64,000 bases of DNA from Vulcanisaeta thermophila. GTDB taxonomy: Archaea; Thermoproteota; Thermoprotei; Thermoproteales; Thermocladiaceae. Position numbers and translations under genes: made by a program. The stretch is taken from positions 723,177 through 787,176 of the forward strand of contig NZ_BCLI01000001.1 in NCBI RefSeq assembly GCF_001748385.1, read 5' to 3'. Below the pieces are notes generated by a model, which worked only from the letters and a program-made list of their open reading frames with translations, searched no databases and was not told the origin of the DNA. Positions 9,554 to 45,284 of the stretch are shown in pieces; the stretch's first letter is position 1; every line of letters begins with the position of its first letter.

Positions 9554-10798
9554 TCAGACCACCTCGTGCTCGTAGGCGTCTGGGTCCAGGAGCCCGTGGC
9601 CCGACAGGTTGAATACTATGACCGAGCCCTTGGGCATCCTCCTGGCCTCGTCAATCACGGCCTTGATAGCGTGGGCTGACTCGGGGGCTGGTATTATGCC
9701 CTCAGTCCTCGCGAAGAGCCTGGCTGCCCTGAGGACCTCCTCCTGCTCGTAAGCCCTGGTCTCCACGTAACCCTCCTTAATCAGTAATGATAGGCTTGGC
9801 GCCGCCCCGTGGTACCTAAGCCCAGCTGCGTGGGTTGGTGGTGGTACGTAGTCGTGGCCCAGGGTCAACATCTTGATCATCGGTAGTAAACCCCCTGTGT
9901 CTGGGAAGTCGTATGTGTACCTGCCCTTGGTTAGTTTGGGCGCCGCCGTGGATTCCACGGCCAGGAACCTCGTCTTTTCGAAACCCTCCCCCCTGAGTTT
10001 CATTCCCATCATTGGGAAACTGAAACCGCTGAAGTTCGAGCCACCACCAACACAGCCCACCACTAGGTCGGGCTCCTCTGGGAGTTGTTGGAGTACCTCC
10101 TGACCGATCACGGTTTGGTGAAGCACCACGAAGCCCAGGACACTCCCTGGTATGTACTTCCTACCCTCACCCATTAGCGTGAACTCTATGGCCTCAGTAA
10201 TCGCAAGCCCAAGGCTCCCTGGGTGGTCCGGCCTTGACCTCAGGGCCTCAATACCGTACTTAGTAACCTCACTGGGGCTTGGGTACACATCCGCCCCGTA
10301 AACCCTCATGAATAGGACCCTCTGTTTCTTATTCATGTATGAGTTCCTGGTCATGAAGATCGTGGCCTTAACCCCAAGCAGCGCGGCGGCTAGCGAGACC
10401 GCCAGGCCCCACTGCCCAGCGCCCGTCTCGGTAACCACCTCCTTGGCGCCATCCCTAATCGCGTAGTAAACCTGTGGGATTGCCGTGTTAAGTTTGTGTG
10501 ATCCAGTGGGTAGTGCGCCCTCGAACTTATAGTAAATCCTAACGCCATTGCCCAGGGCCCTCTCCAGCCCCACAGCTTCCCTGAGGGGTGTGGGTCTACC
10601 CATCCTTGCATAGAGCTCCCTGACCTCCTCTGGTATGGGTACGTACCTCAACGCCGTGAACTCCTGATCCAACAACTCACTGGGCATTATCCTCATGAGT
10701 AGGGCAATCCTGGAATCGCCCTCGTAGGGATCAATGGGTGGTGGTAGTGGTTTTGGTAGGTCCACGTTTATGTTGTACCAGTAGTGGGGCACGTTCAT
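9554..10798 (-). CDS. trpB: Tryptophan synthase beta chain, TrpB2 type
   Basis: Joins indole and serine to tryptophan using PLP. The 414-residue protein has the PLP lysine in [10 protein letters not shown], the TETGAGQWG substrate loop, and the phosphate-binding CVGGGSNF. The GSHK form, the N-terminal extension with several prolines and the length point to the TrpB2 class rather than bacterial TrpB1 (GAHK, about 395 residues). Start is ATG 10798, overlapping the trpA stop by ATGA; an upstream ATG at 10819 would lie deeper in trpA. No TrpB1 is present in the window, so this copy seems to work with the adjacent TrpA. TrpB2 enzymes elsewhere often act alone or with atypical TrpA. Confidence 0.9.
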
Positions 10799-11514
10799 TG
10801 AAGCCCACCCCTGAGCCACTTCAGGAACTCACCGCACCTCTCCTGGTCGTGTATTTTATCCAGGAGTGCCGTGCCCACCACAACCGCGTCAGCCCCGGCG
10901 TTTATGACGACCCTAACCATGTCGGGGTTATTTATTGCGAAGCCAGCCACGAGAAATACGTCGCCAATGAGCCTCCTAACCTCCCTCACATTACGCTCTA
11001 TGTAGAGCGGTAACCTAATGCCAGTGGCTGCGTAGAGACCCAGGTATATGAAGAGTGGGTCGTACTTAACGAGCCTCGTTATTATCCTATGCGGTGTGTT
11101 GCTGGATATGAAGAATGAGGGCATGAGCCCATAACTCCTCATGACCTTTACGTACTCATCAACCAGGTCCAGGTATTCGAATATCAGGTCTGGGAATAGT
11201 ACGGAAACAGCATTGACCTCCTGGGCCACCTGGGCAACCATGGGTAGTTTATCCACGTAATCCTCAACATAACCCATGAGTATCGTGGGCACCTCACCAT
11301 ACCCACCCACCATGACTGCCTCGAGGCCCTTCATGGATGATTGGAAGTGTGTCCTCCTGATGGCCGGCCCATCATACTTGGGATTGACCGTGGGTATGCC
11401 AACCTCCAGGAAGTCTGAGTGCTTAACCAAGCACTCAACAACCCTTGGGAAGGATTCTTTATCTGGGTATGTGGCTGTTATGTACGTGCCGAGGCCCGGT
11501 TTCCTTATACCCAT
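10795..11514 (-). CDS. trpA: Tryptophan synthase alpha chain (short archaeal form)
   Basis: Cleaves indole-3-glycerol phosphate to indole and glyceraldehyde 3-phosphate. The 239-residue protein is shorter than bacterial TrpA (about 268). The catalytic Glu lies in FLEVGIP (about 37) and the Asp in KYDGPAIRR; the phosphate-binding end reads [13 protein letters not shown]. First gene of the minus-strand trp operon, diverging from trpC. A minus-strand TATA candidate overlaps the palindrome TAAAGCTTTA (11560-11569), which would leave a short leader of about 20 bases before ATG 11514. The short alpha chain paired with TrpB2 is typical of crenarchaea such as Sulfolobus. Confidence 0.9.
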
Positions 11515-11660
11515 TGGGGCATGTCCACACCCACCAGGGCTTGGTTTGGTTGTGGGTTTTAAAGCTTTATGCTCTATGTATTCCTTGATCGTGAGTATTT
11601 AATCATTGCCATGGATTAAATAAGGTAAATACTTATATAATGAGCTGGGGAGGACCCACA
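11515..11660. promoter_or_regulatory. Divergent trpA/trpC control region with 8-bp dyad
   Basis: Between trpA and trpC lies a perfect inverted repeat, ATTTAATC (11597-11604) and GATTAAAT (11614-11621), with a 9-base spacer. It sits 11 bp before the trpC TATA box CTTATATAA (11632-11640). A second palindrome, TAAAGCTTTA (11560-11569), overlaps the likely trpA TATA box. The trpC TATA centre is 25 bp before ATG 11661. The dyad is placed to bind a regulator that could act on both directions; which protein binds is unknown. Confidence 0.55.
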
Positions 11661-12407
11661 ATGCAGGACTTCCTGAGTCACATTGGGGAGTTGACGAGGA
11701 TGAGGATTAATGCCCTGAGGGGCGGTTTCAGGGCGCCAAGCCTTAGGAGGGCCATTGAGGGTAGGAATGCCGAGGGGTTCCTGGCATTGATAGGTGAGTA
11801 TAAGAGGGCGAGCCCCAGCGGTGTTATTCAATTAAATATTGACCCCTGGACCTACTTCTCAAGGCTCAGGGATTACGTGGCGGGCTTCAGCGTGCTTGTG
11901 GAGCCCATTTACTTCCTGGGAAGCCCACACCTGGTTAGTATTGCGGTATCCTTCGGTAAGCCCGTGCTTTATAAGGACTTCGTGATATCCAGGGAGCAGG
12001 TTAATGAGGCCTCGGGCCTCGGCGCCAGCGCGGTTCTCCTAATAACCAGGTTGTTGGGTGAGGGGATTGGGGAATTCATTGATTATAGTAGGAGGCAGGG
12101 GCTGGAGCCCCTGGTCGAGGTAGATAATCTCGAGGATGCCCTCAGGGTTTTGGATTTGGATAGGAATGTGATGCTGGGTATTAACTCCAGGGACTTAGGC
12201 AACCTCTCGGTGTCCATTGCGAGGGCTGTGGAGATAATTAGGGGTGTTAGGTCCAGGGCTGATTTGATAATTGCCGAGAGCGGTGTTAATGGCGTCAGGG
12301 AGGCCCTTGAGCTTGCCAGGGCCGGTGCCAACGCGGTACTCGTGGGCACGGCATTGATGAAAAAGCCTGAACTCGCGGTGGAATTAAGCGGTGTTAGGCT
12401 TGCTTAG
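11661..12407 (+). CDS. trpC: Indole-3-glycerol phosphate synthase
   Basis: Closes the indole ring of CdRP to give indole-3-glycerol phosphate. It has the catalytic KRASPS motif (about 46-51), PVLYKDFV (catalytic Lys near 104), LGINSRDLG and the phosphate-binding AESGV and AVLVGTALM. Start is taken at ATG 11661, 25 bp from the TATA centre, giving 248 residues; the ATG at 11640 lies inside the TATA box and cannot be in a leaderless mRNA. It is transcribed away from trpABDFEG, so all seven trp functions lie in one locus. Its end overlaps the convergent next gene by four bases. Confidence 0.94.
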   Translation: MQDFLSHIGELTRMRINALRGGFRAPSLRRAIEGRNAEGFLALIGEYKRASPSGVIQLNIDPWTYFSRLRDYVAGFSVLVEPIYFLGSPHLVSIAVSFGKPVLYKDFVISREQVNEASGLGASAVLLITRLLGEGIGEFIDYSRRQGLEPLVEVDNLEDALRVLDLDRNVMLGINSRDLGNLSVSIARAVEIIRGVRSRADLIIAESGVNGVREALELARAGANAVLVGTALMKKPELAVELSGVRLA

Positions 12408-12940
12408 AGTATTTCCGCATCATTATAGGTAAGCTTTGCGAGGGTTGAATTACTCCTAAGCCAGTCCATGTCCTCAATGCCCATCACCCTAAGGACTGCA
12501 CCAAGCATTGCAGTCACTACATCGTTCCTACCCACCCTACCATACCTGCTGGTGTTTACGTAAATAACACGCTTACCTGCCCCTGAAACCTTCATGGCTA
12601 TATCCCTACTCGGTGCATTTATTATTACGTACTTCCTGGCACTCATAACCTCATCCGCATGTGTGTCAAGTAGCCTGTGGTCAGTCACCACAACCACGTC
12701 GGGCTCCTTAATGGGGCCCCTACCATGTGCCTTTGAGTCCAGGATCCTCATGTGCACCTTAGCAATGGTTTCCCTCCTCTCGGGATCGTACTCTGGGTAT
12801 ACCATCACGTAGAACCCCTGCTTTATGAGGTACTGTGCCAGGGATTCCACGGTTTTTAATAACTCATCCCCGCTCCGCCCGTAGAAGATAATTCCACTTA
12901 TCTCCGGCATATTTACGAACATTATTACTTCATCCCACAT
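12404..12940 (-). CDS. Orphan 2-oxoacid:ferredoxin oxidoreductase gamma-like subunit
   Basis: A 178-residue protein resembling the gamma (catalytic-domain) subunit of pyruvate/2-oxoacid:ferredoxin oxidoreductases: GIIFYGRSGDE near the start (canonical GRGGQG, here degraded), YPEYDPERRE, EPDVVVVTD, YVIINAP and NDVVTAMLGAVLRVMG. No alpha, beta or delta subunit is nearby, and the GRGGQG loop is altered. It sits between the trp operon and aroA, so a link to an aromatic 2-oxoacid such as indolepyruvate is possible but unsupported by sequence. TATA TTATAAATAC at about 12967-12976 suits ATG 12940; M11 is an alternative start. Confidence 0.72.
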   Translation of the reverse strand: MWDEVIMFVNMPEISGIIFYGRSGDELLKTVESLAQYLIKQGFYVMVYPEYDPERRETIAKVHMRILDSKAHGRGPIKEPDVVVVTDHRLLDTHADEVMSARKYVIINAPSRDIAMKVSGAGKRVIYVNTSRYGRVGRNDVVTAMLGAVLRVMGIEDMDWLRSNSTLAKLTYNDAEIL

Positions 12941-13008
12941 AAAAGGTTTTGTATTAATTCTAAAGTATTTATAATGATTGAATTAGGCAATGGGAGAATT
13001 ATCAATCA

Positions 13009-14301
13009 TTAATTGGTTAATTCAATCCGCGCCCCAAGCTCCTGTAAGTCCCAGGGGAATGTGGTCCAGGATTTTAGGACATCCTCCCAATTAACCACGG
13101 TGATGGGCTCCCTGGATGCCAACCCGGCTATTGTGGCCATCATCACAATCCTATGATCACCCTGCGAACCCACCTCGCATCCTCCCCTGAACTCACCAAC
13201 ACCATTTATCTCTAAAACACCAACCTCCTCATTAACACTCACATTGGCACCCACGCACTTGAGCACCTGCGCCATGGACCTAAGCCTATTGCTCTCCTTA
13301 TGGGCTAGGTGCTCGATCCCTGTGATTCTAGAGGTTCCGCGGGCCCTCGCCATGAGTAGTGCCAGTGGCATGGCTATGTCTGGGGAGTCCGAGAGATCCA
13401 CAGAGACTGATTTCAACTCGCTCGTCCTAGAGCCCAGGACTAGGACCTTATCACCATGCTCCAGGAATTCCACACCCATCTCCCTAGCGTAATTAATGAA
13501 TGAGTACTCACCCTCCACCGCGTACTCCCTCGATAACCCATTGATTTCCAGGTCAAACCCTAGCAGTACCGCTAGTACCATGTAGAATGCCGCCAATGCG
13601 TAATCCCCTGGGATCACTATCTCCGTGCTTGGCGGCCTGAATTCCTGGGCTCCGTTTATGAATACGGTGTTTCCGTTAATCTCCACATTAATGCCGAATT
13701 CCCTCAGGACCTTGGCCGTGGCGTCTATGTAGGGTTTTGACTTAATGGGCGGCCTTATGCTTATTTCAATTCCCCCAGTGGTGAGTGGTGCCAGGTACAT
13801 CAGGGATGAAATGAACTGGGAACTCACGGAACCACTAAGCGAAACATAACCACCACTTAACTCCCCACCCCTCACCCTAACCACACCGCCAACACTCTCA
13901 ACATCAACGCCCAAACCCCTCAGTGCCGTTATTAGGGGTTCCATGGGCCTCGTGGTCAGTGAGCCCCTGGGTATTAGGTAGGTCATGCCCTTAATTCCCG
14001 AGTAAACCCCAGTGAGGGTTCTCAGGGTGAATCCACTCTCGCCAACGTCCACCACCCTCAGGGGCTCCGCATCAATTGCCCTCCTAACCCTTACCAGGTC
14101 CCTTCTTATTTCCAGGTCGCTTATGGGTTTTATGCCGTTTACCATGGCCCAGGTGTCCGAGCCCCAATTCAACCCCTTAATTGTTACCCAGGACTTGGAA
14201 AGCCCCGATGCCAGTAGGTACCTCAGGGTGAATGCCTTGGATGGTGGCGCCTTAATCTCCCTCCTCCTAAGTTCAAAGCCCCTTGTAACCAGCTTACCCA
14301 T
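13009..14301 (-). CDS. aroA: 5-enolpyruvylshikimate-3-phosphate synthase
   Basis: Transfers enolpyruvyl from PEP to shikimate 3-phosphate, step six of the shikimate pathway. The 430-residue protein has the N-terminal KAPPSKAF loop, a GESGFTLR version of the NSGT/LR motif, SGSVSSQF, DLSDSPDIAMPLA (catalytic Asp) and GDHRIVMMA near the end. The two globular halves are complete. It is the last gene of the minus-strand aro cluster, about 80 bases after the transketolase gene. The Gly-Glu-Ser variant where most EPSPS have GN(S/A)GT is unusual but lies in the same loop. Confidence 0.92.
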   Translation of the reverse strand: MGKLVTRGFELRRREIKAPPSKAFTLRYLLASGLSKSWVTIKGLNWGSDTWAMVNGIKPISDLEIRRDLVRVRRAIDAEPLRVVDVGESGFTLRTLTGVYSGIKGMTYLIPRGSLTTRPMEPLITALRGLGVDVESVGGVVRVRGGELSGGYVSLSGSVSSQFISSLMYLAPLTTGGIEISIRPPIKSKPYIDATAKVLREFGINVEINGNTVFINGAQEFRPPSTEIVIPGDYALAAFYMVLAVLLGFDLEINGLSREYAVEGEYSFINYAREMGVEFLEHGDKVLVLGSRTSELKSVSVDLSDSPDIAMPLALLMARARGTSRITGIEHLAHKESNRLRSMAQVLKCVGANVSVNEEVGVLEINGVGEFRGGCEVGSQGDHRIVMMATIAGLASREPITVVNWEDVLKSWTTFPWDLQELGARIELTN

Positions 14302-44500: not shown

Positions 44501-44965
44501 CTAAATGGGTAGTCTCGGGTCCTCCTTTATCACCTTAGCCACTATGAGGGTTGATGTCCTCTCCACCTCCTCCATATTCATTATCTGCTCCAGTATCTTC
44601 AGTATCTCATCCTTACCACTAGCCCTAACCTGAACCACAAAGTCCCACTCACCAAATATGTAGTAGACATGCGTAACCCCAGCCACGGAGGCGAGTTTCT
44701 GACCTACAGTTTCATGATAACCAGGCCCGTACTTGGCCTTGACCAGTATCACGGCCACGTAGTCCTTACCCATCTTCTCAGGGCTGAGCTTAGCGTGGCA
44801 TCCAAGGATGACGCCAAGCCTCTCGAGCTTCTTTATCCTGTAGTAAACCGTGGACTTGGATATCTTCAACTTACTGGCCATTTCATCCAGCGTCACCCTA
44901 CAGTCATCCTGTAACATCTTGAGTATCTCCAAGTCGGTCTGGTCTATCTCCTCACTCACCGCCAT
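44501..44965 (-). CDS. Lrp/AsnC-family transcription regulator
   Basis: A 154-residue regulator. Residues about 8-62 are the helix-turn-helix (LEILKMLQDDCRVTLDEMAS, KSTVYYRIKKLERLGVI) and the rest is a RAM ligand-binding domain with the conserved YYIFGEWDFVVQVRA, an aromatic-rich form. These proteins sense amino acids. Target genes are not adjacent; the aro/trp cluster is 30 kb away. Start ATG 44965 has a minus-strand TATA (GTTTTTTAAATTAC, 44986-44999) 26 bp upstream. Confidence 0.92.
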   Translation of the reverse strand: MAVSEEIDQTDLEILKMLQDDCRVTLDEMASKLKISKSTVYYRIKKLERLGVILGCHAKLSPEKMGKDYVAVILVKAKYGPGYHETVGQKLASVAGVTHVYYIFGEWDFVVQVRASGKDEILKILEQIMNMEEVERTSTLIVAKVIKEDPRLPI

Positions 44966-45284
44966 TGCTTAATCAAGTACATGAGTAATTTAAAAAACAT
45001 TCGCTTGATATAAAAATGCCTATTTTATGCTGAGCATTATTGCTAATTATTGAAATGTCCCTATAATTAAGGAGAACATGAACGATATATGTTCCCAGGT
45101 ATTTAGCGTAAATAATTCATGTCCATGAAAGACGTAAGAAAAAGTAAGAGTTTAAACATGCAGTAACCACCGTTTCGATTTGCCGGTAACGTGTCGATTA
45201 GGTGGTCATGATAAAAAAGAAATGTTTTTATACCAGACCAAGCCCGCTTTACTGGGTTGAGGAAATCCTCCTGGGTGATTTAAT
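44966..45284. promoter_or_regulatory. 319-bp intergenic region with nested inverted repeats and the UPF0147 promoter
   Basis: Contains the minus-strand promoter of the Lrp gene, an imperfect nested dyad at 45166-45206 (ACCACC...GGTGGT outer arms, ACCG/CGGT inner arms, with direct repeats GTTTCGATT and GTGTCGATT), and the TATA TTTTTATACC (45224-45233) of the downstream gene. Nothing else is recognised in the first 150 bases. Confidence 0.45.

What the first reader, a model, noticed from the sequence alone, without database searches (positions are those of the whole stretch)
11597..11621. Perfect 8-bp dyad between trpC TATA box and trpA: candidate tryptophan operator
ATTTAATC-N9-GATTAAAT is a perfect dyad 11 bp before the trpC TATA box and in the divergent gap to trpA. 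A second palindrome TAAAGCTTTA (11560-11569) overlaps the trpA TATA box. Archaeal trp operons are known to be repressed (TrpY in Methanothermobacter), but no such regulator is encoded here.
Basis: partly seen in the sequence, partly recalled or inferred. Interest (0 to 1): 0.5.

Follow-up and report, generated by a model that had tools for sequence, protein, structure and literature searches.

The report
Incidental dyad beside conserved trp promoter site
The inverted repeat between two tryptophan genes of this heat-loving archaeon is real but looks incidental; a different, conserved DNA site next to it, and a tiny conserved reading frame at the head of the tryptophan operon, are better candidates for its control.

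Summary
The dyad is real and is the only exact copy in the genome. It is weak as evidence: 5% of shuffles of the same 146-bp gap give an arm of at least 8 bp, 1.5% an arm of at least 9.

Comparing the gaps shows two better candidates.

(1) A conserved block just upstream of the trpA BRE/TATA: in trpA orientation roughly RTAATTAYYAAYGAACAA-N3-ATACATAAA, in some species extended to the pseudo-palindrome TTGWTCG-N14-CGAACAA. The window keeps a diverged copy (11575-11613; 0 of 2000 shuffles align as well). It is probably bound by an unidentified regulator of trpABDFEG.

(2) A mini-ORF in the trpA leader (window: MGVDMPQWV*). Its start codon sits at the predicted transcription start and its end overlaps the trpA ATG, with a Trp codon across it. 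It is intact in 15 of 16 leaders from three genera, but not seen in a fourth.

There are no binding or expression data.

The parts
11596..11622 (.). The reported dyad, TATTTAATC-N9-GATTAAATA (9-bp arms)
   Evidence: not conserved in the genus
11575..11613 (-). Diverged copy of the conserved block upstream of the trpA BRE (CATGGCAATGATTAAATACTCACGATCAAGGAATACATA); half-site CGATCAA at 11585-11591
   Evidence: Local alignment to six relatives' blocks, 0 of 2000 shuffles as good in sum; footprint in relatives
   Evidence: The corresponding segment is the most conserved of the gap, mean pairwise identity 0.956 in five relatives
11505..11534 (-). Leader mini-ORF GTG GGT GTG GAC ATG CCC CAA TGG GTA TAA (MGVDMPQWV*), start codon at the predicted transcription start, end overlapping the trpA start
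11624..11640 (+). trpC BRE/TATA (GGTAAATACTTATATAA), about 24.5 bp from the TATA centre to ATG 11661, i.e. probably a leaderless transcript
   Evidence: Sequence and similar spacing in relatives
10795..11514 (-). trpA, first gene of trpABDFEG
11661..12407 (+). trpC, divergent from trpA

Best explanation
The dyad as drawn is an incidental, species-specific inverted repeat in AT-rich DNA. It straddles the edge of the element that evolution has kept: a block directly upstream of the trpA BRE/TATA, RTAATTAYYAAYGAACAA-N3-ATACATAAA in trpA orientation, which in part of the genus is a 28-bp pseudo-palindrome TTGWTCG-N14-CGAACAA. Shown: the sequence, its conservation above the neighbouring spacer, its restriction to the trpA-trpC gap, and a diverged copy in the window. 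Inferred: a dimeric helix-turn-helix regulator, not identified, binds there and sets transcription of trpABDFEG. The position just upstream of BRE/TATA suits an activator that recruits TBP/TFB, as for Tar in Thermococcus; an effect on trpC, further away, is less likely.
For: Non-conservation of the dyad: 0 of 9 other gaps. Mean pairwise column identity in five representatives: 0.43 in the spacer, 0.62 over the 28-bp block, 0.72 in its proximal 17 bp, 0.96 in BRE/TATA; 0.31 expected from composition. Of 31 listed matches to TTGWTCGTWRGTAATTAYTRYC at up to 3 mismatches in 12 genomes, the 7 with 2 or fewer are all in the trpA-trpC gap, one each in 7 genomes. Window copy: 0 of 2000 shuffles reach the summed alignment score. 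Tar binds a palindrome upstream of BRE/TATA of the trp, aro and tyr-phe operons and activates them, and Crenarchaeota almost all lack Tar and TrpY (PMC6737238, passages and Discussion).
Against: The full pseudo-palindrome is perfect in one genome only (G008); several relatives keep only one half-site, and G007 (L077) has no recognisable copy. TTGWTCG-N14-CGAWCAA at up to 2 mismatches is not commoner than its reversed control in any of the 12 genomes (for example 13 against 21 in G008), so no regulon is visible. The window copy has extra bases (4 inside the block, about 7 between block and BRE). No regulator is identified. The 22-mer was built from the sequences it finds; only its absence elsewhere is informative.
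Confidence: 0.6

Rival explanations
1. The dyad is a lineage-specific operator: in this species the ancestral block was remodelled, so that a dimer now reads TATTTAATC and GATTAAATA and controls both trpA and trpC.
For: Perfect 9-bp arms, unique in the genome, between the two promoters; arms of 9 or more in only 44 of 3000 shuffles; the TAATTA core of the relatives is disrupted in this species where the left arm lies.
Against: No relative shares it. A relative (L080) has an unrelated AT-rich dyad of the same 9-9-9 shape, and 8 of 10 gaps have some perfect dyad with arms of 7 or more, with no arms common to all. No second copy in the genome.
Confidence: 0.12
2. There is no specific regulator here: the conserved block is only an extended upstream part of a strong core promoter, and the dyad is chance.
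For: The block abuts BRE/TATA; no regulon; the strongest conservation is in BRE/TATA itself.
Against: The half-site GAACAA, about 7-13 bp upstream of the BRE, is conserved across divergent species, with a less conserved gap (0.47) between, and no other place in 12 genomes has the 22-mer at 2 or fewer mismatches.
Confidence: 0.22
3. Control of the operon is mainly translational: a leaderless mini-ORF with a Trp codon overlapping the trpA start couples trpA translation to decoding of UGG, by termination-reinitiation or by stalling. (Not exclusive with a promoter site.)
For: In-frame mini-ORF with a start codon within 2 nt of the predicted +1 in 15 of 16 leaders from Vulcanisaeta, Caldivirga and a third genus; start-to-trpA distances of 17, 20 or 23 nt, all in the same frame. 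Shuffled leaders do this in 3-10% of cases in each of ten tested. The Lrp gene of the window has a similar ORF, but in its 11 relatives that frame is closed by a stop before or at the gene start. trpA heads the operon in all of them.
Against: W-x-stop follows automatically from a trpA start ATGGNNATAAG; there is only one Trp codon. Stalling at UGG would cover the trpA start, the wrong sign for derepression on starvation. L074 breaks the frame (draft assembly). The four genomes of genus g3 show no such leader (read by eye). Seen first, tested after.
Confidence: 0.2

Closest known systems
Tar (TK0271) site of Thermococcus kodakarensis trp, aro and tyr-phe promoters (PMC6737238; passages and Discussion seen)
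   Same: Pseudo-palindrome directly upstream of BRE/TATA of a trp operon in an archaeon
   Different: Different sequence (TGGACA-N8-TGTCCA is not in the gap); no further strong sites found in the genomes; Tar reported almost absent in Crenarchaeota
TrpY / TRP boxes of Methanothermobacter (via PMC6737238; TGTACA recalled)
   Same: Divergent promoter region at a trp operon
   Different: No TGTACA in the gap; the divergent gene is trpC, not a regulator; TrpY reported almost absent in Crenarchaeota
Cysteine-responsive leaderless short ORFs of mycobacteria (Canestrari et al. 2020; only a review passage seen, PMC9031893)
   Same: Leaderless mini-ORF ahead of a gene, with a codon for a relevant amino acid
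   Different: One Trp codon instead of contiguous codons; overlap with the trpA start; archaeal; no experiment
Translational coupling by termination-reinitiation in archaea (PMC6728339, PMC10666635; listing and start of abstract seen)
   Same: Stop codon overlapping the next start region
   Different: Here the upstream ORF is an 8-10 codon leader, not a gene

Membership tests
   0 of 9 other Vulcanisaeta gaps
TrpY-type control | TRP box TGTACA in the promoter region | tested here: not met
   None in 11515-11660; motif recalled
TrpY-type control | TrpY homologue in the genome | not tested
   Only the statement of PMC6737238 on Crenarchaeota
Tar-type control | TGGACA-N8-TGTCCA upstream of BRE/TATA | tested here: not met
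Tar-type control | Site located just upstream of BRE/TATA | tested here: met
   Position of the conserved block; resemblance in position only
Regulator binding site (any) | Conserved above the neighbouring non-coding DNA | tested here: met
   0.62-0.72 against 0.43; window copy 0 of 2000
Regulator binding site (any) | Bound by a protein | not testable with these tools
   Needs gel shift or footprinting
Amino-acid leader peptide / attenuator | Short ORF at the head of the operon, conserved in frame | tested here: met
   15 of 16 leaders in three genera; not seen in g3
Amino-acid leader peptide / attenuator | Run of codons for the regulated amino acid | tested here: not met
   One Trp codon, which the trpA start ATGG itself supplies
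Amino-acid leader peptide / attenuator | Translated, with effect on the operon | not testable with these tools
   Needs ribosome profiling and reporters

The most novel reading that the evidence does not exclude
The trp operon of Vulcanisaeta, Caldivirga and a third related genus begins with a leaderless leader peptide (MGVDMPQWV* in the window) whose Trp codon and stop overlap the trpA start, so that tryptophan availability is sensed by a translating ribosome: a trp leader peptide in Archaea without a hairpin attenuator, working together, in Vulcanisaeta, with a new crenarchaeal trp operator upstream of the BRE.
Probability: 0.15. Interest if true: 0.78.

Novelty: new member of a known kind. 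Interest (0 to 1): 0.4.

Why it matters
How Crenarchaeota control tryptophan synthesis is open: the two known archaeal regulators, TrpY and Tar, are almost absent from them (PMC6737238). A conserved site confined to the trp promoter gives a bait for finding the missing regulator. The conserved mini-ORF, if translated, would point to ribosome-based control at an archaeal biosynthetic operon.

Tried and rejected
Tried and rejected: (a) the dyad as a repeated genomic motif: one exact copy, nothing at 1 mismatch. (b) A trp or aromatic regulon sharing TTGWTCG-N14-CGAWCAA: not above the reversed control (its list was cut, the counts per genome are complete). (c) The window's Lrp-type protein (44501-44965) as a trp-specific regulator: present at 90% identity or more in all 11 other genomes of the genus, including two where trpA and trpC were not found (both are incomplete assemblies). 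The genome holds three proteins with the AsnC ligand domain. (d) A known RNA family in 11400-11800: none at gathering score. (e) TrpY and Tar sites in the gap: none. (f) Mini-ORF overlap in one genome as evidence: 8 of 53 long ORFs of the window have some such ORF at their first start, several being only tails of upstream genes, so one genome alone proves nothing.

Limits: gap lengths in the dyad comparison were set by hand at about 160 (146 for the window, 270 for L077). Loci from the genome search on the minus strand were at first read unturned and corrected. Shuffle frequencies are for ten leaders out of sixteen. Genomes whose trpA start was not covered (G020) or not found (G006, G010, G017, G022) are not in the sixteen, nor are the four g3 genomes with a match.

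Full report
Observation. The gap is 146 bp, 42% G+C, between trpA on the minus strand and trpC on the plus strand. The dyad is the only exact copy in the genome; two places have 2 mismatches and three further ones 3. In 3000 dinucleotide shuffles of the gap, 157 hold a perfect dyad with arms of 8 or more and 44 with arms of 9 or more, spacer up to 20. With 28 such dyads in the window, one in a promoter gap is not remarkable.

Conservation of the dyad. The divergent trpA-trpC arrangement is kept in the genus. Ten gaps could be read: the window and nine others, some from closely related pairs. None of the nine has the dyad. Eight of the ten gaps hold some perfect dyad with arms of 7 or more, with no arms common to all; one relative, L080, has an unrelated AT-rich dyad of the same 9-9-9 shape, and two (L079, L092) have none. 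Two genomes of the genus (G006, G010; 87% and 79% complete) gave neither trpA nor trpC. The relatives are about 59-71% identical in TrpC or TrpA over whole matches, so very recent operators would be missed.

What is conserved. Read towards trpA, relatives show TAATTA-N5-GAACAA-N4-TACATAAARCTTTTAAA. In G008 the block is a perfect TTGATCG-N14-CGAACAA, in G009 it has one mismatch, in G003 two; L078, L079 and L080 keep the proximal half only; L092 keeps the distal half and a weak proximal one; L077 has no clear copy. Among five representatives (L073, L075, L078, L079, L092; chosen one per close group; L074, L076 and L080 dropped as near copies, L072 and L077 left out) mean column identity is 0.43 in the spacer, 0.62 in the 28-bp block, 0.72 in its proximal 17 bp, 0.47 in the gap to the BRE, and 0.96 in BRE/TATA. 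The 22-mer TTGWTCGTWRGTAATTAYTRYC at up to 2 mismatches occurs at 7 places in 12 genomes, all in the trp gap; at 3 mismatches there are 24 further listed rows, one of them the opposite strand of the G008 trp site. In the window, CATGGCAATGATTAAATACTCACGATCAAGGAATACATA (minus, 11613-11575) aligns with the block; the summed score against six relatives is reached by 0 of 2000 shuffles, the single scores by 0 to 30 of 2000. The dyad's left arm and spacer are inside this copy, the right arm outside.

Mechanism. The block ends a few bases upstream of the BRE of trpA. Tar of Thermococcus binds a palindrome in this position and activates the trp, aro and tyr-phe operons; the same paper states that Crenarchaeota almost all lack Tar and TrpY and may use a third regulator (PMC6737238, passages and Discussion). 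I infer a dimeric regulator that acts on trpABDFEG, more likely as activator. The regulator is unknown. The Lrp-type protein of the window is present throughout the genus, also where trp genes were not found. Neither a TGTACA box nor the Tar site is in the gap, and Rfam finds nothing.

Leader mini-ORF. trpA is the first gene of trpABDFEG in Vulcanisaeta and in Caldivirga, and of at least trpABD in one genome of a third genus, where the fetched stretch ends. Upstream of its ATG, in another frame, 15 of 16 readable leaders (10 Vulcanisaeta, 5 Caldivirga, 1 third genus) hold a short ORF that ends CAA TGG NNN TAA across the trpA start: window MGVDMPQWV*, relatives such as MDSMPQWT* (reading GTG as the start), Caldivirga MRDGKLQWV* and MSGEARLQWA*, third genus MMVTMKLQWR*. 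The start codon lies within 2 nt of the +1 predicted from the trpA TATA, using the spacing of the leaderless-looking trpC as yardstick, and its distance to the trpA ATG is 17, 20 or 23 nt, always in the same frame, although leaders differ by indels. The exception is L074, from a draft whose trpC is also broken. Shuffled leaders give this in 3-10% of cases in each of ten leaders tested. In the window the Lrp gene also has such an ORF, but in its 11 relatives that frame is closed by a stop before or at the gene start. Against it: W-x-stop follows from the trpA start itself; the four genomes of genus g3 with a match do not show it; and a stall at UGG would cover the trpA start. A coupling role by termination-reinitiation is the simpler reading; tryptophan sensing is the bolder one.

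Verdict. The dyad is ordinary in itself. The gap is not: it holds a conserved block confined to this promoter and a conserved leader ORF, neither of which I found described. That statement rests on the paper searches in an open-access library only.

Noticed in passing
window 11505-11534 (minus): Conserved leader mini-ORF of trpA (MGVDMPQWV*), start codon at the predicted transcription start, Trp codon and stop across the trpA start; 15 of 16 leaders in three genera.
   Followed up: partly
window 44966-45040 (minus), loci L136-L147: The promoter of the Lrp-type gene has a conserved stretch between TATA and start, roughly TTTTTATAACAAGCGAATGTTTTTTAAAT, in nearly all 12 genomes: a candidate self-regulation site.
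   Followed up: no
window 12972-13011: Perfect dyad with 10-bp arms and a 20-bp spacer, TAATGATTGA...TCAATCATTA, upstream of the small POR-domain gene 12404-12940 and touching the end of aroA.
   Followed up: no
window 12404-12940 (minus): A 178-aa protein with a pyruvate ferredoxin/flavodoxin oxidoreductase domain (Pfam POR) stays between trpC and aroA in the five Vulcanisaeta regions examined.
   Followed up: no
loci L074, L076: Two draft assemblies have longer C runs in the trpA leader (6 and 7 instead of 4) and broken trpC frames, possibly homopolymer errors.
   Followed up: no
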